Assembly (NCBI GenBank): GCA_023159155.1
Contig: JAJNNX010000046.1
Coordinates: forward strand, 372,001 to 436,000
From: Ustulina deusta
Taxonomy: Eukaryota > Ascomycota > Sordariomycetes > Xylariales > Xylariaceae
Direction of reading: 5' to 3'
Length of the DNA: 64,000 nucleotides
Positions 7,582 through 54,245 of the stretch are shown here, piece by piece (within the stretch, counting starts at the first letter, position 1; each line of letters starts with the position of its first letter). Under the pieces are notes generated by a model. That model saw only the letters and a program-made list of their open reading frames with translations, had not been told where the DNA came from and did not search any database. The position numbers were made by a program, and so were the translations under genes.

Positions 7582-8814
7582 TCATAGATATGGCCCAACC
7601 TGCTTTTCAGTCCAGTCCCAGTATTCCTTTCCTAGGGCTTCCTCGCACAGATCCTTTCTAGCCTTACCTGGTCGTCCGTGTGGGCTAACTACAAGTTGTC
7701 ACATAAGCCGTCAGACTGAATTTTCTTTCCCCCTTTGTTTAGTAATCTGGGAGGATGCACGTACCGAAGGCACCGTTTTCAACCCTAGGGTCTAGCCCGG
7801 CGTATAGCTCCGTATATGCGCCGTACTTAGGTTCTTTACCTAAAATCTTCTAGAATGGATCTTAGCACACTACCCAGCTTAGAAGTTCCCGGGCCTTCCT
7901 CGTTGAGCTGATGAACTCACCACAAGACGGGATTGCCAGCCGGGCATTGTGCGTTGTAGCTCTGTTGGGAATATCCCCGGGTGAAGAGACTAGGATATTT
8001 CGGATTAGTTTCTTGCTCGACAAGATGATAACGATGGCCGAGGAGCCAGAACGTCCACTCACCACATGGAGCACACCCTCCCCGTCGCGCTCGCTTCGCC
8101 TGGCGGCCTCGCATGAATGCAGAATATTGCCAGCTTTACTGCGCTCGTACTTTTGCCACTGGTCTTCGTCTCTCTTGTAATCCATGTTGGAGAAGTCAAT
8201 GGCAGGCTTAGGGGCGCTGTCGGCTGCCGCTGACGAAACCCAGACCACACGAACAGAATGTTGCGGGGCCGATCTCGCCGTCGCGGCCAGGGTCGGATTG
8301 AGGCAGCGAGTGAATAAAAACGTTCCAATGCTGTTGACGCCCAACTGTAATTCATAGCCCTGAACCGTCTTAGAGCCCACAGGCGGTGTCATGACGCCGG
8401 CGTTGTTAAAGAGGACGTCAAGACGCTGTTCCTTTGCGAGGAAGTCGTCAGCCGACTTCTTGATCGTCGCTAGGTCACTGAGGTCGAGGTAGAGGTAGGC
8501 TAGCTCGCCCTTGGAGGTCGGATAGAGCTGGCGGACTTCTTCGATAGCCTTCTTTGCCTTAGACTCGGATCGTGCTGCCACGTATACTTTGGCATGCTTG
8601 GAGTATAATATCTTGACGAGCTCTTTACCCAGACCACTGTTCGCTCCAGTCACAATAAAGACCTGTCATGACAAATAATAGGTCAGGAAAACCACCTAGT
8701 TTCACAAGGCGACACCCAAGCGCAAGTTCAACTCACCTTGCCTTCCTGGGAACCAAGGTTCTGTTCGGTCAAGAGTGGTTCCCCGGGGAACATATGCTTT
8801 AATGTGCTAGCCAT
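7582..8814 (-). CDS. Short-chain dehydrogenase/reductase
   Basis: NAD(P)-dependent oxidoreductase of the classical/extended SDR type similar to fungal retinol-dehydrogenase-like proteins, 312 aa. Five exons: 8814-8737, 8662-8063, 7989-7921, 7849-7765, 7688-7582, together 939 nt. The Rossmann motif TGANSGLG is at about 31-38, NNAG at 112-115, the catalytic Ser in VSSAAAD at about 169-170, and YxxxK (YERSK) at 198-202. Splicing restores the PG segment SLHPGIFPTEL after the active site and the conserved tail KEPKYGAYTELYAGL ... KEYWDWTEKQV. Nothing essential is missing. It is convergent with the bZIP gene. The substrate is unknown; it may be a tailoring enzyme of the adjacent RiPP locus or an unrelated accessory enzyme. 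Confidence 0.92.
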
Positions 8815-12330: not shown

Positions 12331-13482
12331 TTATTCAGGCAGATAGAAGTTTTCCCATAAGGACCCATTTCTGTGCCGAGGTTCGACAGCCAATTGTCTA
12401 TTGTACCGGCTCGAAACCCATTCTCTGACCTTGGTAAAATCTCTGCAGGTGTGTGTCATGTCCGAATCGATATAGTTCTGATTGATAGCTTCATACCAGC
12501 GGGTGGGGATAATAGTCATATCTGCATTACACTGGATCATTTGCCTTAGATGATCAACACAATGTACTGTTGAAAAGATTTAGCATACTCAAATCACATA
12601 TTCTGAAATTTATCACTGGCGAGAACTTACACTGATGCATCTCTCCATGAATCCCATCGAGGACATACTCGTTCGGGTAGAACGATTTCCGTATATGGTC
12701 CTATCGTCAATGATGAGCCGAATATCTTTGTCAATGGCTTTGAGGTTCTCTGCCCGCGTACCAAGCAGTGGAGGGTGTGGAACATGTCAAGCCTAGAAAA
12801 CGTTAGCATCGTGGATGGGCTCAGGACTTTAGAGGGGTGGCCATACCCGCCAAGATAGCCTCCTCTATTGCTGTTCCAAAATTCAGTATAACTATCTCCC
12901 CAGGCTTCTTTGGCTTCTTGGTCTGTCAGTAGAAAGTAACGATCTACTTTATCATTAGAGACAATCAAGGCTTCACTATTCTCTCAAGGCTTACTCTTCA
13001 CAAGCTCCTCCCAGGCTAAGTCCACTTCGGGACCTGAGCCAATATATTTCCAGCTCGGAGACTCAGGAGGAATATACTCTCCCTTTTTCTCGTCAAAACG
13101 GGGGCTCCCTGTGAATGTGCGTTGGTTTACGCTGGCCGCGATTCGCGCAGGACCTACAAATAAATGTTAGAACTGGTTTTGGGTTACCGAATTTTCCATG
13201 TCAGAATGAGTATTATGTACCAAAACCACTAGAATATCCAGAAGCAAAGGCTCCCAGGTAATCATAGGCCCGCATCTTCCACATAGTGAACACAGTTATA
13301 AAGACCGCTATTATGATGGACATGGCCCAAAGGATTCCTAAGATGACCCATGGAAACCTCCTTCTAGAGCCATACGTTCGAAGGATGCTCCGGTGCAACT
13401 GGTCAACCTCGATCTCACACGACGCCTTGTCAGACTCAGCAGACGAGTATTTCTCGTCCTGGATCTTTGAATATTTAGCCGT
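12331..13482 (-). CDS. UstYa-like (DUF3328) RiPP oxidase 1; start codon uncertain
   Basis: Type II membrane protein of the UstYa family (PF11807), which oxidises and cyclises ribosomal peptides such as ustiloxin and phomopsin. Six exons: 13482-13221, 13153-12995, 12943-12847, 12792-12762, 12700-12631, 12566-12331. Residues 44-67 form a transmembrane helix after a basic RRR. The two copper-site motifs are HTLHC (178-182) and HQLHC (205-209); both are rebuilt by splicing, with the typical contexts LDHIRKSFYPNEY and VDHLRQMIQC. No in-frame ATG lies between the upstream stop (13486-13488) and the membrane helix. The position where homologues have Met (before AKYSKIQDEKYS) is ACG at 13480-13482. 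So it uses a non-AUG start, has an unseen 5' exon, or carries a start-loss. It is divergent from the second UstYa-like gene. Confidence 0.9.
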
Positions 13483-14653
13483 GATTCAAGACACATGAAA
13501 GTTGAGCGTTAGAACAGGCCGTGTGTCAGTATTAACACGCAGAGATTGTAGGGAAGCATGCAACGATCTGAGAAGAATTTGGGGCGAGGGGAGACGCTTG
13601 AATGAAAGAGTTGGAAAAAGCGGTACACCGTCCTATCCTCTCACGGGGTGTTGATCCAAAACAGTAATCATCCATGGATTTCCATGCAATGTATTGTTCA
13701 TGTAGGTCTATTCGTACCTTGCAAGCGCCTTTACGCGTATCTCGGCTCAAACGCTGCGTTGGAGAGTAGTGTGCCAATACAATTGAGATAGTGGCGTTCC
13801 GCGTGATCGAGGAAAGTATAGAAAAAGATCTAGTGCTATGTGCTCTCGGACATCAAGGCAGCATATTACAAATACATATTCAAGTAGGGTGGGTAACATC
13901 AACAATGAAACCGGCGGAATTATGGTCAAGCCTTAGTGATATTACACGCAATAACCCAATAATATTGTCTCGGAGTTGGTAAGGTCTTTGTAATCCCTCT
14001 CTGGCCTCCCCATTTCGGCCTTGTCAAGAATGAGATATATAAGAAAGAAAAAATAGCTACCTTTAGCTTAAGTTGGTTTAAACAGCTTCATAAAATTATG
14101 TATAGCTTTAATATTTTTGCTTTAACTATTTTATATGTTTAAAAACAACAAACCGTGAGCACCTTAAAACATAACCTTCTAAAGTGAGGGCAGATCTCGC
14201 GATTTTGAGGCGTAATAGCCAAATACCCTGTCCACCCAATCTGGTAAGTGATTCAGCCCCAGCACAGGGATTTGACTTTTCGTCTGGACTCTGTCGCCAT
14301 ATTCTGCAATGCAATGCAATGCAATGCAGTGCAACAATAAGCCGAAGGAGAACAACACAGCAGATACTGTCAACCACCCCGCCCAGGATTGTGTCGGGGA
14401 TATCGGAACACACACACACAAAGATCTAAGCAATGATTTGAAAAAGAAAAAGAAAAAAAGCTTATTTCGAAACGACCGGGCAATAATGGCATAGAACTAA
14501 GGGAGGATTTTCCGAAAGTCTGGAAACCCCTGAGCCTGGATGATACTTCTGTTCTAGTATAGACACACTAAATATACCCAACCACTTTTCACATTTTCAT
14601 GAAAATACAATCTCATTTTTTGCAAGTGTGCTAAATTGTTGTTTGAAGACCAG
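13483..14653. promoter_or_regulatory. Shared divergent promoter region of the two UstYa-like genes
   Basis: A spacer of 1.2 kb separates the 5' ends of the two oxidase genes, so both promoters lie here. The middle (about 14035-14150) is strongly AT-rich. The region also contains the TGCAA array at 14305-14334 and an A-rich run near 14441-14460. No gene is supported. Confidence 0.5.
14305..14334. repeat. TGCAA pentanucleotide microsatellite, six units
   Basis: Six consecutive 5-bp units, TGCAA x4, TGCAG, TGCAA, in the divergent promoter of the UstYa-like pair. Copy number could vary between strains. Confidence 0.85.
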
Positions 14654-15643
14654 ATGGAATCAACACGATTTCTCGACGATGTCGACTCGCCTGAGAAGTG
14701 GCAGAGGGAAAAACAATTCAATTCCTCGAAGCGCTCTTCTTACAAAAGTCTAATCCTTCATGGCTCCCTCATTACATTCTATTCGGTCTTGTTTTTCTTC
14801 GCAATGCTTAGGAGCGGGCACCTAACAACAAACCACGATGTGGTTCGCGACATGGTTTCTTGTATGCATTGTTGGCGATTTTTTGAGTGATAAAAAACTG
14901 ACATAAGAGTAACATATAGCACCTGCAAGGGGGTCGGTGAGCTACAAAACACAATACTTCACCAACGACAGACAGAGTGAGGAGGAGTATTTTGGAGAGC
15001 CCAGCGACGAAATAGAAGCCGCTTGGGAGGATTTACTAGCACGTGAGCTCCCAGTATTATACTTCTAGAAGACAAGGGACCTAGTTAACCATGAATAGCT
15101 TCGACTATTCGCCTGACTCCTGAAGAGATGACTCGCCTTGACAGGCCCAAGGGAATCCAGCTTCCAGACGGGGACTATCTTGGCACTCTGAATGTCTTTC
15201 ATGACTTGCACTGTCTTCGACGACTCGCACGACTACTCTATGTTGACCATTATTTCCCCAACATCACCGATGAAGACAAGTACATGAACCTCATGCACGC
15301 ACGTGAGTGAAAGAACCCCTATGCCAAAAGTCTAGACACTGGACAAGCAAAGTAACCCCCAAAACAATCAGAGCACTGCATGCACCGACTCCGTCAGTCG
15401 ATCCAATGCCGTGGCGACATCAGCGTGGCTACTTTTATCTGGGGAAAGCGACAAGCGATACCCCTTGCCAACTTCACGTCGCTGCACGAATGCGTGAATT
15501 GGGATGCAATCTACAAGTGGTCGTACAATAGACGAGTGGATGTGTTTGAGCCTGGGCTATTAATTCACCCTACCCTTGGTCCTGCATATGCGAGCCTGGG
15601 GAATGGATCCTTTACCGGTGCTGTGCAAGATACAGCGCTGTGA
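14654..15643 (+). CDS. UstYa-like (DUF3328) RiPP oxidase 2
   Basis: Second UstYa-family protein, 268 aa, from four exons: 14654-14861, 14920-15042, 15099-15302, 15372-15643 (807 nt). The ATG at 14654 fits the family's short cytoplasmic N-terminus. A single transmembrane helix lies at about 32-51 (SLILHGSLITFYSVLFFFAML). The two metal-site motifs are HDLHC (145-149), in the context LGTLNVFHDLHCL, and HAQHC (177-181), formed across the last splice and followed by MHRLRQSIQCRGDIS. Potential N-glycosylation sites (NIT, NFT, NGS) fit a lumenal domain. The paralogue at 12331-13482 is diverged in sequence, so the two probably do different steps. The putative precursor lies 1.3 kb downstream on the same strand, the arrangement expected of a dikaritin cluster. 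Confidence 0.93.
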
Positions 15644-16937
15644 GTGATGTATACTGTAGAGACATAGATAGTTCGAACAACACAGACAGGTTGTCACTTG
15701 CGTGTGGCTGTATGTAGTAACTAGAGCTTTATTCCTGCATTAAACATTTGGTCCCCACTGCAGATATTCCGAGTCACTAATCGAGTTGGCTCAGGCCAAA
15801 GTCAACAATCTACGGCCACGTAGGTCACCTCGCGGTTACCGTTGTGAGGGGTCATGAGAACAACAAGAGAGTAAACCAAATTACGTGATTCGGCCATACG
15901 AGAGGGAGACGGTGAGTATCACAACGCACCTATTCGCTGTCCGAAATGATAAACTTTGTGGGGTGTGTAAATAGATCTAAGTCCTGTGCATATGCAGGTC
16001 AACTGGCGCATCTCTAATGCCATAAAGCGCCACTGGTTTTTTGGAATTATCACTTGATGTATCATGGGTAGGCATACTGACTGTCACGCGACAGATCTGT
16101 AGCACGGGCAGACCTTTCGTCCGTTTCGATGTGTGCTTACAGTCGGAACTATCATCACATATACGCCAGTGGCGGAAAACTGCACCATAGCGTATAGAAA
16201 GCCACGGCATGGCTTACATAAACTGAGGTTTCAACCCCCAAAGAATCAAACAAGGATAAAGAAGTAAGAGCAAGAAATAAGACAATCACTACTTGATTAG
16301 ACTTAGCTATACTTCTATAGTCTGTTTGGAGAGTGTAACCCAGAGGGCCGAGACAACCAGCCTCAGATCGATGCACGATTAATTAAGTATACAACACCCG
16401 CACGCTCATTTGCCAATCACAGTTATCCTGAATGCTGCCCGCTCGATTTCATACCAATGCAGTTAGTTGTGTATGCCCTCGACATGTTGGACAGGGATGA
16501 ATGAATCTAGATCTTAGGATAGGGTTACATTCCCTTTGAGGGGCCATTCAACATAACTCAACCCACATCATTCCGTAGTATCCGAAGCTCATTTACGGTG
16601 TAATGCATCTACCGCTTGACCAAATCGCACCAAGGGACTCTACGGCTGGCTTCAGTTTAGTAAACATTGTGTGTTTCAGCCAGCGTGACGACAGGACTGA
16701 TGGCTCCGGAGCAAAGCATGCCCGATGAGATTCGAAGAATTCGGGAACATCGACTTGTGATGCAAGGATTCAAACTCGGGGGTGGTATTGGAATGTATGG
16801 GATATATAAATTGATGGTAATTCCCCCCTTTATTGATATGAGTACAAGTTTCTCAAGCACCCGAAAAAACATATATAGCCTCGACAACTTCCAAGCAACC
16901 TAAAATCATACATCACTCAAAAATAAAATCCTTCAAA
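15644..16937. promoter_or_regulatory. Upstream region of the RiPP precursor gene
   Basis: No gene is supported between UstYa-like 2 and the precursor. Two TATA-like elements precede the precursor: TATATAAA at 16803-16810 (about 130 bp before the ATG) and TATATAG at 16872-16878 (about 60 bp before). The leader just before the ATG is A-rich (CTTCAAAATG), a good fungal initiation context. Which TATA element is used cannot be told from sequence. Confidence 0.45.
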
Positions 16938-17189
16938 ATGCGTTATTCAGTTGTATTCGCTGCCACTCTTTGTGCTTTTCTTGTCAGCGCCGCTCCAGTT
17001 GACCCTGTGAAACGCCATGAAGTAGACAACTCCTACACCAATAAAATCAACCGGCGCTCTGACGCGGACACGGCATACACCAAGGAAGTCTCCGACAAGC
17101 GCTCCGATGCCGATACGGCATACACCAAGGAAGTTTCCGACAAGCGTTCTGACGCTGATACGGCATACACCAAGGAAGTCTCTGACTAA
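16938..17189 (+). CDS. Putative RiPP precursor: secreted, Kex2-processed repeat peptide
   Basis: Encodes an 83-aa secretory peptide precursor, single exon. Residues 1 to about 19 are a clear signal peptide (MRYSVVFAATLCAFLVSAA), followed by a short propeptide ending in Lys-Arg (25-26). Then come HEVDNSYTNKIN-RR (27-40) and three units of SDADTAYTKEVSD, the first two followed by Lys-Arg (54-55, 69-70) and the last by the stop. Kex2-type cleavage would release three identical 13-mers and one divergent 12-mer, with basic residues trimmed afterwards. The architecture matches UstA/PhomA/GigA-type precursors of dikaritins. Each unit has one Tyr, the residue UstYa enzymes usually modify, and all four units share Tyr-Thr. 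It does not contain the ustiloxin, phomopsin or asperipin core motifs I know. Two UstYa-like genes sit just upstream. The mature product is unknown; an unmodified secreted peptide is the alternative. Confidence 0.85.
   Translation: MRYSVVFAATLCAFLVSAAPVDPVKRHEVDNSYTNKINRRSDADTAYTKEVSDKRSDADTAYTKEVSDKRSDADTAYTKEVSD
17058..17186 (+). repeat. Three in-frame tandem units (45, 45, 39 bp) encoding the peptide core
   Basis: Units at 17058-17102, 17103-17147 and 17148-17186. They differ only at third codon positions (for example GCG/GCC/GCT for Ala, GAC/GAT for Asp, GTC/GTT for Val), so the amino acid sequence is identical while the DNA has diverged. This points to selection on the peptide. Confidence 0.95.
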
Positions 17190-33723: not shown

Positions 33724-36700
33724 TCAGCAGGCTTCCAGGTAATTGCTGGGGACAAGCCCGCCTTGCCCGGCCCCGTTGCCCGAGTGGATTTCCGCTTCCC
33801 ACCAGCCGTCGTCCTGGTGCCGGACGACCGCCAAGATGTCGCCCTTGGCGAAGCCAAGCTCTTCGGGGATGGCGGCTTGGTACATGTACAACGCGCGCGC
33901 TGTGAGAGAGTTAGTTGACTTCAGTTCTCCCGTCGGCTGTTGGGTTGCGGGATCCGACTTACCGTAATGTAGAATAGCCCGTCCCTCTGGCGTATACTGC
34001 CGCGACGGGTCGGCCACGCTCCTGCTCCGCTGTCTATTTTCTTGTGCTCCCGCATCGCGACCGTCGTAAAAGCTCATGGTCCGGGAGCTGGAGCTCGTCC
34101 CTGGACGCCCCCCACTTCCCCTACTGCGCACAGATCCGTAAACGGACCCCTCCCCCCCGACCGGAGCAAGCTGGACGGCCATGGCGCTAGCTCTACTAAC
34201 GGGGCGATTATAGTCAGCTCGGTAGGGCGACGGGGACGCTGTCCTGGAATGGATGCCGCTCGGAGAGTTCGCTTGGTAGTAACCTTGATCCGATCCGCGC
34301 TTCGGCGTCATGCTCGGTTGTGGGGAACCTCCGTACTGGCTGCCGCCATATGGGTTAGGTGAAGCTGAACGCTGTGCTTGCCGTGTCTCCGGTCGCGTCT
34401 CTGCCCGAGTCCCGGGTCGAGTCTCTGGTCGAGTCTCCGGTCGTGTCTCCGCCCGAGTTCCGGGTCGAGTCTCTGGCCGTGTCTCTGGCCGAGTCTCTGG
34501 CCGCGTTGCCGGTCGTGTCTCTGGTCGTGCCTCTGGCCGTGTCGCCGGTCGTGTCTCCGCCCAAGTTCCGGGTCGAGTCTCTGGTCGAGTCTCTGGCCGT
34601 GTCTCTGCTCGTGTCTCTGCTCGAGTCCCGGGTCGAGGAGAGACACTTCGGGGTGGCGCCGGCGAAGCTGCCCGGGGCACATCGACCTGCCTCGTGGCTG
34701 GGCGAGACGAAGTGTTGTTGTAAACGGATGCTGGCCGACTCGAAGTTAGCAGCTGTCTTGTCTGCCCAGTATATTTCCTAGACGACTCTTGCATGGCTTT
34801 TGACGTGACAGCGGGTGGCGGGACGCCTAGTCTTTGCACGGGTGGATCGTAAGACGGAGGCGGTGTTCCTCTCAATCCTGGACCCGCGTCGCTGCCGGCT
34901 CTGGGCGCTGGTATCGGGCGGGTAAATAACGGCGTCCGCTCCTGGGTCCGCTCTTGAGTCCGCTCCACAGGCCTCTCGGCAGTTCTTTCGACAGGTCGCT
35001 GTATTTGTTCTTGCGGCTGGCTTTGCGTCCGCTCATGTGTTCGATCGGGGATTGGTGTGGAGATACCATGATATCGGTCCGCAGAGATTCGACTCATCGG
35101 TTGCTTGTTGTCCACGGCCCCTTTCAGCTCAGCCAGTGCAAGTGCAATGGGGTCCTGTTCTTCTTCCGGAGGCTGTGCCCCTTTGTCGATAGACTGACTG
35201 CGCTTGTCTATGTTAGCAACAGGGAAAACGTTCTGTCCCACGTTCAAGGCCAGCGAGGCATTGGCATCGATCGGCTCGGGGCTCGCAGTCCTATCCTTAA
35301 GCATGTTCTTTGGCTCTGGTTGGTAAGTCTGGGGACGCCGGGACGCAGACGAATTCTGCGATACCACCGGACCCCACGTATTTCTCGTGGCTGGTCGGAC
35401 ATCTTTGGACACATCTTTGGTACTCTTCCTCCGGAACGGACTGTGATTTTGGAAGAAGCCGCTCTTCTTCTTCACCATACGCTTCTCCGGCTCCGCGGCG
35501 ACGGGCTCTGGCTTCACTGGCGATGTCTTCCCACTAGGAGGCTCTTGGCTAGAGAACGACGTCGGGTTCGAATAGTCGCTGTTGTCGTCTGGCGCCGAAA
35601 TGTTTGAACTAGTGGCTGAGTTCATACCTTCGTAGCGCGCTGACACATGAGAGCTGGTCGAGCTGTTTAATCCGTCGATGCGCGCTGGTGCATTCGAGGT
35701 TGCGGCGGAAGTCTTCGTGGTGTCAACCCGTGTTACGACATTGGAATGAACCGCCGAGGTCGTGCCTTCATACCGGGCTGGCACATCGGAGCTCTTCGCA
35801 GAGTTGAATGCTTCGGCGCGCGACGATACACTAGGAGCTGTAGCAGAGGGCTTCATACTATCGAAGCGTGACGGCGCCTTGTGGATTGCGACCGAGTTCG
35901 TGCCATCCGTACGACAGAGCATTGTCATGCCGTCCATGGGATAGGGGTCGTGAGGCACTGCTGAGAACTGTGAAGAGTCATATCGCTGCATCAAGTGGAC
36001 AGCGCGCCGGTCTTGGCTACTGTACGGATCCTGAGGAAGCATGGCCGGGGGTTGTGCATTCTGATGCGTAGCGGCAGAAGGCTGGCTATCCTGATTCTGC
36101 TGGGTTAAGGTGGAAGAATGGCCATTCTGATTCTGATGCGTCACGGCGGAAGGCTGGCTACTCTGATTCTGCTGGGTCATGGTGGAAGAGTGACTACTCT
36201 GGTTCTGATGGGCCATGGCGGAAGGCTGGCTATTCTGGATTTGATACGCCACGGCGGCAGGCTGGCTACTCTGATTTTGATGGGTCATGGCGGAAGGATG
36301 GCTATTCTGATTCTGGCGAGTCACGGCGGAGGGATGGTCATTATGATTCTGATGGGTCATAATGGAAGGATAGCTGTTCTGAGTCTGATGGGTTATGGCG
36401 GAAGGATAGCTGTTCTGATTCTGGTGGGTCTTAACGGAGGGATGACTATTCTGATGTTGATGGGTCATAATGGAAGGATGGCTGAGCTGTGCAGGGGCGG
36501 CGTGAGGATAGCTATTTTGACGAGGCATGCCCACGGGACGGCTACCCTGATGAGACACGGCAGGAGGATGGATATTTTGCAGAGGCATGGCCGGACCGGG
36601 GTGGCCATTTAGTAGAGGCATATTCACATTGGGCTCTATATGCAAGGGCGACACGGGTTCCTGGTGTCCCAGGTCCCGAGCCAGGGCAGAATTGGGATCG

Positions 36701-53105: not shown

Positions 53106-54245
53106 TCATACCATTGCCGGTTGTGGTGGCGGCGGCATAGCCATGGGCTGGCCGGGTGGCTGTGGTATACCCATAGGCGGAGCTGGTGCTGGTATCATAC
53201 CCATGGGTGGAGCTGGTGCTGGTATCATACCCATGGGCGGAGCTGGTGCTGGTAGCATAGCCATGGGCGGAGCTGGTGCTGGTATCATACCCATGGGAAG
53301 GGCTGGTGCCGGTGCCGGTGCTTGTACTAGCGGCATAGCTGTGGGGAGGGCTGGTAAAGGTGCAGGTGCCGGTGCCGGTGCCGGTGACATCACAAAGGGC
53401 AGTGTTGGTGCTGGTAATCCGGTGAAAACTGGCATGGGTGGCGGCGGTGGAGGTCTCGGGAACATGCCTGACACTGACCATTGGATCAGAACCAACAAGC
53501 CCACTATTGTCCATTGAAGCCCTTGAATAGGACCGCCTGGGAGAATCTCGAGCTGCGGTGTCGGCCCGGACAATACGGTTGTTGTAAAGTTCAAAGCGTT
53601 AGCCGCCTGGGTGGTGGAATATGCTGCTGCCAGAGCAAGACCAAAGGCGTATAACATGGTAACGGATAACATAGACCTCATGAAAGACATATTCGACGGA
53701 GGAGCGGGTACCAATTGCTTCATGGAACGCTTAATAAAAAGCATTGCGATGATACTTAAGAAGAACAACCCCGCCGAAGCCGCGAGCAAGGGAGAAAAGA
53801 TCTTTGTTTGGAAAATATATGCCGCTTCGAGCAGCGGCTCCATGTCATTGTCGTAGTCACCATCCAAGTTAACGGTGCTACTAAGAAACGCATCCTTCAA
53901 CTGGCTGTCTCCGAGCGAAGAGCTGGGCAAACATTTCAAGTCGCTCCGGAGGGGTTGCGACGCGCATATTCCTATCTAATATCAGCTTCAATCTACAGAA
54001 TTGGGGCGGAATTATCATGTAAGAACATACCAAAGTAGCCAATCCTGACCTGCATGGGCTGTGATTGATTGGTTTGAAGCTGAACAAGAAACAGATTCGG
54101 GATACCTGGTGATGTCGAAAGACATCCCACCAGACTAAGGACTAAGGTAATGGGTTAGTTATCCTAATACATATAAATTGAAGTGGAATATCATACCGTA
54201 AAAGGTTGTAACTATCGCTGATAAGATCCATGATAAAAATCTCAT
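53106..54245 (-). CDS. FIG1: Fig1-family Ca2+ regulator/membrane-fusion protein with Pro-rich repeat tail
   Basis: Plasma-membrane protein related to Fig1, which works in low-affinity Ca2+ influx and cell fusion during mating. 341 aa from exons 54245-54197, 54141-54031 and 53971-53106 (1026 nt). Helix 1 is at the N-terminus (MRFLSWILSAIVTTFYVLSL). The extracellular loop carries the signature QVRIGYFGICAS, formed across the second splice, and NLDGDYDNDMEPLLEA. Helices 2-4 are FSPLLAASAGLFFLSIIAML, SMLSVTMLYAFGLALAAAYS and GLQWTIVGLLVLIQWSVSG, giving the four-helix claudin-like layout. The last 100 residues are Pro/Ala/Met-rich tandem repeats (PAPAPPMGMI units), predicted cytoplasmic. Such a tail is not part of the core family. 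An older split reading beginning at the internal MKCLPSS would miss the Fig1 signature. Confidence 0.85.
53143..53340 (-). repeat. 30-bp coding tandem array (PAPAPPMGMI units)
   Basis: Five to six units of 30 bp encoding PAPAPPMGMI, PAPAPPMAML and similar in the C-terminal tail of the Fig1-type protein. The mirror frame reads as Gly/Ala-rich and is an artefact of the repeat. Confidence 0.9.

What the first reader, a model, noticed from the sequence alone, without database searches (positions are those of the whole stretch)
12331..17189. Candidate new dikaritin-type RiPP core locus: two UstYa-like oxidases plus a Kex2-repeat precursor
Seen directly: two genes each encoding one membrane helix and two HxxHC motifs (HTLHC/HQLHC and HDLHC/HAQHC), and within 1.3 kb a signal-peptide precursor with dibasic-separated repeats. 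Known: UstYa (DUF3328) proteins cyclise ribosomal peptides in ustiloxin, phomopsin, asperipin and epichloecyclin pathways. Inference: this is a complete minimal RiPP system with an unusual core. The core SDADTAYTKEVSD has none of the published core motifs I can recall.
Basis: partly seen in the sequence, partly recalled or inferred. Interest (0 to 1): 0.92.

Follow-up and report, generated by a model that had tools for sequence, protein, structure and literature searches.

The report
Fungal UstYa peptide cluster, new core
A wood-rotting fungus carries two probable copper-enzyme genes next to a gene for a small repeated peptide, a known type of gene set for making modified peptides; the peptide sequence is new, but this fungus has several such sets.

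Summary
Window 12331-17189 holds two UstYa (PF11807/DUF3328) genes, A (-) and B (+), and an intact 83-aa Kex2-type repeat precursor 1,295 bp after B. The source is Ustulina deusta. The repeats differ only at third codon positions, so the peptide looks selected. Corrections: a degenerate unit (HEVDNSYTNKIN) precedes the three SDADTAYTKEVSD units, and UstYa-A has no ATG where its relatives start, so 'complete system' is not shown. In the same genome 9 of 15 UstYa loci scanned (of 26) have a Kex2-repeat gene 0.6-2.1 kb from a UstYa match, with mutually unlike cores. A core without relatives is ordinary: a survey found 2,560 of 7,878 such proteins without homologues (PMC7329392). No precursor homologue was found; UstYa-A and -B share a contig length in Xylaria sp. 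FL0043. Best reading: a lineage-specific UstYa-modified peptide (RiPP) locus of known kind, probably oxidised at its single tyrosine; product unknown. By the five-gene dikaritin definition it fails: no tyrosinase match on the contig.

The parts
12331..13482 (-). UstYa-A gene (PF11807); exons 13479-13221, 13153-12995, 12943-12847, 12792-12762, 12700-12631, 12566-12331; 283 residues after the position where relatives start; HTLHC and HQLHC
   Evidence: contains the annotated 231-aa protein P0014 letter for letter; codon 13482-13480 aligns with the relatives' start but is not ATG
14654..15643 (+). UstYa-B gene (PF11807); exons 14654-14861, 14920-15042, 15099-15302, 15372-15643; 268 aa; HDLHC and HAQHC
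   Evidence: model 100% identical to the annotated Ustulina deusta protein P0002
16803..16810 (+). TATATAAA, possible TATA box about 130 bp before the precursor ATG
   Evidence: read from the sequence; inference
16938..17189 (+). Kex2-type repeat precursor, 83 aa, one open frame
16938..16991 (+). probable signal peptide (MRYSVVFAATLCAFLVSA)
   Evidence: hydropathy and composition only; no signal-peptide program was available
17016..17051 (+). degenerate first unit HEVDNSYTNKIN, between KR and RR
   Evidence: by inspection
17058..17096 (+). core unit 1 SDADTAYTKEVSD
17103..17141 (+). core unit 2 SDADTAYTKEVSD
17148..17186 (+). core unit 3 SDADTAYTKEVSD, followed directly by the stop codon

Best explanation
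This is a small UstYa-associated RiPP locus of known kind with a lineage-specific core. The precursor enters the ER by its signal peptide and is cut at KR/RR by a Kex2-type protease (general pathway of this class). Each released unit carries one Tyr in the motif D-x-[AS]-Y-T-x-x-[IV]. The UstYa proteins, membrane-anchored and by family binuclear copper enzymes, then oxidise the unit, most likely joining the Tyr side chain to a neighbouring residue. Shown here: gene anatomy, family membership, intact HxxHC motifs, linkage, and third-position-only differences between repeats. Inferred: processing, copper use, dimerisation and cyclisation. Which residue is the partner (Thr +1, Val/Ile +4, or another) is a guess.
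For: PF11807 in both genes; both HxxHC motifs invariant in the 26 aligned relatives; the predicted model of B places the motifs on two long helices (142-156, 168-192) after a helix at 30-54, in line with the layout described for CctR. Precursor repeats differ only at third codon positions. In the same genome 9 of 15 scanned UstYa loci have a Kex2-repeat gene 0.6-2.1 kb from a UstYa match. No Condensation or ketoacyl-synthase match on the contig (best candidates only are scored).
Against: UstYa-A has no ATG at the conserved start. No precursor homologue was found although UstYa relatives were. No expression or product data. The core lacks the EDYXI motif of ustiloxin and phomopsin precursors (motif from PMC6339444). 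DUF3328 enzymes also hydroxylate, halogenate and isomerise, and act on non-ribosomal products (PMC12435403, passages); two of the other UstYa/repeat-gene loci used as support, C45 and C42, have Condensation matches about 6-9 kb away, so their UstYa genes may serve an NRPS instead.
Confidence: 0.65

Rival explanations
1. The repeat gene makes a linear secreted peptide (signal or effector-like) that the UstYa proteins do not modify.
For: Most Kex2-repeat proteins (6,120 of 7,878) have no DUF3328 gene nearby (PMC7329392, section 7), and some are linear pheromones. No homologue of this precursor was found beside the UstYa relatives in my searches.
Against: It sits beside UstYa-B, and repeat genes sit beside 8 of the 14 other UstYa loci scanned; it has a Tyr in every unit, as do 65.6% of repeated sequences of UstYa-linked precursors against 38.2% of others. 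It lacks the closely spaced Trp residues described for alpha-mating factors.
Confidence: 0.18
2. The locus is decaying in this strain: UstYa-A has lost its normal start and the pathway is reduced or silent.
For: No ATG at the relatives' start position, and the first in-frame ATG lies inside the membrane helix. Only three intact core units and one degenerate unit.
Against: The rest of UstYa-A is open, with GT-AG introns and both motifs; UstYa-B and the precursor are intact; repeats differ only at third positions. The start could be a base error in the assembly, a non-ATG start or an unrecognised upstream exon.
Confidence: 0.12
3. The UstYa pair tailors a non-ribosomal or polyketide product, as in cyclochlorotine, and the repeat gene is a bystander.
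For: DUF3328 enzymes do act in such pathways (PMC12435403, PMC12048977, passages). A P450, an SDR and two probable regulators lie within about 13 kb. At two other UstYa loci of this genome, C45 and C42, Condensation matches lie about 6-9 kb away.
Against: No Condensation (PF00668) and no ketoacyl-synthase (PF00109) match on contig C65, 481 kb, among the 42 and 119 matches listed for the genome.
Confidence: 0.05

Closest known systems
Ustiloxin and phomopsin clusters (dikaritins)
   Same: Signal peptide plus Kex2-separated repeats, two or more DUF3328 enzymes, Tyr in the core (PMC6514808, PMC7329392)
   Different: No EDYXI core motif; no tyrosinase or S41 peptidase match on the contig
Asperipin-2a cluster (aprA, aprY, aprT, aprR; PMC6514808, passages)
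   Same: No tyrosinase; Tyr-Thr in the core (FYYTGY there, AYTKEV here)
   Different: Two UstYa genes instead of one; a single Tyr; no transporter among the 4 ORFs of 150 aa or more in window 1-17.2 kb
Kex2-processed repeat proteins (KEPs) with DUF3328 neighbours
   [quoted passage not shown] same architecture
   Different: This core is not in the sections I read; the supplementary list could not be opened
Other UstYa-KEP loci of the same genome
   Same: Contig C59 has the same order and strands: UstYa (-), UstYa (+), KEP (+)
   Different: Unlike cores; UstYa proteins only about 21-42% identical in the aligned pieces

Membership tests
DUF3328/UstYa (PF11807) | Score over the curated Pfam cut-off (25 bits) | tested here: met
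   A 128.7 (preliminary model), B 170.6 bits
DUF3328/UstYa (PF11807) | HxxHC(x)nHxxHC | tested here: met
   Both genes; invariant in the 26 aligned proteins
DUF3328/UstYa (PF11807) | Copper binding and dimerisation | not testable with these tools
   Shown for CctR, PMC12435403 (passages)
Kex2-processed repeat protein (KEP, Umemura 2020) | Three or more repeats of 8 aa or more between KR/KK/RK/RR, none over 100 aa | tested here: met
   Three identical 13-aa units plus one degenerate; the third unit ends at the stop instead of a dibasic site
Kex2-processed repeat protein (KEP, Umemura 2020) | Signal peptide by SignalP | tested here: inconclusive
   Hydropathy only (mean 2.39 over residues 5-19)
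Dikaritin, DUF3328 as class-defining enzyme (Montalban-Lopez 2021, as cited in PMC12048977) | DUF3328 protein with two HxxHC motifs in a RiPP cluster | tested here: met
   that the cluster makes a RiPP is inferred
Dikaritin, five-gene definition (Ding, as cited in PMC12048977) | Tyrosinase | tested here: not met
   No PF00264 match on contig C65 (23 matches listed elsewhere)
Dikaritin, five-gene definition (Ding, as cited in PMC12048977) | Transporter or peptidase | tested here: inconclusive
   No S41 peptidase match on C65 (5 matches elsewhere); transporters and other peptidases not searched by family; none among the 4 ORFs of 150 aa or more in window 1-17.2 kb
Dikaritin, five-gene definition (Ding, as cited in PMC12048977) | Methyltransferase | not tested
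   No family search made
Ustiloxin/phomopsin precursor | EDYXI core | tested here: not met
   Core is SDADTAYTKEVSD, read directly; motif from PMC6339444 (passages)
Dikaritin | Side-chain cyclised product | not testable with these tools
   Needs mass spectrometry

The most novel reading that the evidence does not exclude
A xylariaceous branch of UstYa RiPPs in which a divergent UstYa-B, so far seen under a name only in Xylariaceae, works with a widespread-type UstYa-A as a heterodimer on a D-x-[AS]-Y-T-x-x-[IV] core, forming a cross-link of a spacing not yet described (for example Tyr to Val/Ile at +4).
Probability: 0.12. Interest if true: 0.5.

Novelty: new member of a known kind. Interest (0 to 1): 0.32.

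Why it matters
One more candidate modified-peptide locus in a little-explored fungus. More useful is the set: nine UstYa/repeat-gene neighbours with mutually unlike cores in one genome would allow a direct test of which core features UstYa enzymes recognise, including three loci whose repeats have no tyrosine (C42, C66, C30).

Tried and rejected
An upstream first exon for UstYa-A (13701-13645) was rejected after relatives showed where the protein starts. A preliminary splice junction in UstYa-A (used) was moved by three bases. P0041, first taken for a possible precursor of Xylaria arbuscula, is a UstYa fragment. The UstYa genes at the 14 other loci scanned are not recent duplicates of these. 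A search for [ED]DYxI in those 14 loci gave two single matches and no array, and a loose repeat scan of the six loci without a repeat gene found none. PDB sequence searches gave nothing up to E 1; the PDB fold search gave no match at E 0.001 or better, best 0.89, from a model of moderate confidence (pLDDT 69.4, pTM 0.53). NCBIfam gave nothing for 5 proteins.

Papers: PMC7329392 seen as abstract and sections 6, 7 and 13; PMC6514808, PMC9233826, PMC12048977, PMC6339444, PMC12435403 and PMC8403587 as passages; the rest only as listings. Whether this is in print: one search found 0 papers with four fragments of the core; none of the 20 papers listed of 425 and none of the 20 listed of 29 names Ustulina or Kretzschmaria deusta. 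Four more searches were for the class. Supplementary tables were not open to me.

Full report
What is there. The window is C65:372001-436000 of a 56-Mb, 123-contig genome. My spliced UstYa-B is 100% identical over 268 aa to Ustulina deusta F4824DRAFT_298731, so the source is that species (Xylariaceae; that it rots wood of trees is recalled). UstYa-A is on the minus strand, UstYa-B on the plus strand, and the precursor follows B after 1,295 bp. Pfam names both genes PF11807 UstYa (A with a preliminary model). The final model of A contains the annotated 231-aa protein letter for letter. Each gene has two HxxHC motifs and one hydrophobic segment.

The precursor. MRYSVVFAATLCAFLVSAAPVDPVKR is followed by HEVDNSYTNKIN, RR, and three SDADTAYTKEVSD units separated by KR; the last unit ends at the stop. 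Aligned on Tyr, all four units share D at -3, Y and T, with conservative changes around them (by inspection). The three identical units differ at six nucleotide columns, all third positions and all silent; a simple random-change model gives about 3e-4 for that, with the columns taken as independent. This argues that the peptide is translated and selected. It gave one match in the genome, itself.

UstYa-A start. The relatives P0015-P0019 start with M-[AT]-[KR]-Y. Here the same frame runs through that position without an ATG; a stop lies two codons further upstream, and the first in-frame ATG is residue 54, inside the membrane helix. The database annotation starts there. Relatives with a normal start exist. 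I cannot tell an assembly error, a non-ATG start, an unseen exon or a true loss apart.

Relatives. UstYa-B gave 12 proteins among 563 candidates: itself, 10 others named as Xylaria, Nemania or Xylariaceae at 40-80% identity, and one weak unnamed hit (that Nemania is in Xylariaceae is recalled). UstYa-A belongs to a wider type: 28 proteins at E up to 1, itself included, among them Xylaria, Nemania, Neurospora crassa, Zymoseptoria tritici and Mycena (artificial joint query). Xylaria sp. FL0043 has A (90%) and B (80%) relatives whose longest contig is 184,186 bases in both rows; I take this as the same contig. Apart from it and the window's own contig, no contig length occurs in both lists, so linkage in relatives rests on one species. 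No precursor homologue was found: one search covered proteins of about 46-145 aa, about 127-404 aa; only the window's own protein came back, in a row that counts two contigs, which I could not resolve. Unannotated small genes and diverged cores would be missed.

The genome as control. One search gave 45 UstYa exon matches, which I grouped by eye into 26 loci. I scanned 15 of 26: 10 with about 10 kb on each side, 4 with 10 kb in all, and the window; the ten are mostly the best-scoring ones, not a random sample, and 11 loci were not read. Nine of 15 hold a run of similar units between dibasic sites. With the lenient settings seven, including this one, have three or more similar units and two (C66, C30) have two; with the strict settings, run before the last four loci were fetched, five of 11 had three or more and three more (C34, C66, C30) had two. 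The nearest UstYa match is 565-2,085 bp away in all nine (from positions I entered). Six of the nine have Tyr in the unit. Cores are mutually unlike: APWPLYVAKDA, VDVPNYSNSYLD, FEADPLLHIGNQAESSYTT, NWNEAAWSNFVKSYVDGAEQV, EVDAVQNTVY with VDAFINLLY, IDVADAF, EESVDGTQIAEGW, DGTTEFDPDFALKH. About 79 kb without UstYa genes (rest of the window, L010, L011) gave none with the strict settings and one with the lenient settings (window 36072-36359, + strand, antisense to a repetitive coding frame). Residue-shuffled open frames gave none in three rounds, counted with a stricter unit length of 8. Both scans also returned a few out-of-frame readings of the arrays at L027 and at this locus, which I dropped. 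Against this support: Condensation matches lie about 6-9 kb from the UstYa genes at C45 and C42, so those enzymes may belong to an NRPS.

Neighbours. To the left lie a P450 (the part in the window matches the C-terminal half of the model), a Zn2Cys6 regulator, a DUF3425 protein and an SDR; to the right a protein-kinase-like gene (match below the Pfam cut-off) and a class IV aminotransferase. I see no evidence that these belong to the locus, and cannot exclude it. No tyrosinase, S41 peptidase, Condensation or ketoacyl-synthase match is listed on contig C65 (the tool scores only the best candidates).

Mechanism. CctR, a DUF3328 hydroxylase, is a dimeric, membrane-bound, binuclear copper enzyme with the metals in the HxxHC motifs; the same paper cites AprY as copper- and oxygen-dependent too (PMC12435403, passages). 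In ustiloxin, UstYa and UstYb act together with a tyrosinase, while asperipin needs one UstYa-type enzyme and its four-gene cluster has no tyrosinase (PMC6514808, passages). The model of B puts the motifs on two helices as expected, with moderate confidence. I therefore expect Kex2 release and copper-dependent oxidation at the single Tyr. The cross-link partner is unknown.

Novelty. In the survey of 1,461 fungal strains, 1,758 of 7,878 repeat proteins have DUF3328 genes nearby and 2,560 have no homologue (PMC7329392). A search of the paper library for four fragments of the core found none. The core is new to my searches; the kind is known.

Noticed in passing
G000 contigs C34, C59, C75, C45, C47, C42 (L012, L015, L017, L021, L027, L034); weaker C66, C30 (L024, L031): Eight further UstYa loci of this genome have an adjacent Kex2-repeat gene with an unlike core; many units begin with acidic residues.
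   Followed up: partly
G000:C59:20531-24389 (L014, L015): Same gene order and strands as the window locus: UstYa (-), UstYa (+), repeat gene (+), but unlike core and diverged enzymes.
   Followed up: partly
G000:C42:476158-476553 (L034): Ten units of IDVADAF without Tyr or Trp beside two UstYa matches; a Condensation match lies about 6 kb away.
   Followed up: no
G000:C45:487977-500123 (L020, L021): UstYa match, a six-unit repeat gene and two Condensation matches within 13 kb: RiPP-type and NRPS genes side by side.
   Followed up: no
G000:C13:72540-79038 (L033): Two UstYa matches with tyrosinase matches between them, as in the ustiloxin enzyme set, but no repeat precursor found in the 10 kb read.
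   Followed up: partly
window 13482-13480: UstYa-A has no ATG where its relatives start; the annotated protein begins inside the membrane helix.
   Followed up: partly
window 16938-17189: The database row of this precursor counts two contigs; an identical copy may exist in another assembly.
   Followed up: no
window 7862-8665 (-): SDR gene whose frame departs from the usual SDR sequence after YERSKAGN (by eye, recalled pattern); missed intron or damaged gene.
   Followed up: no
window 53167-53313: 30-bp tandem array in a proline-rich open frame.
   Followed up: no
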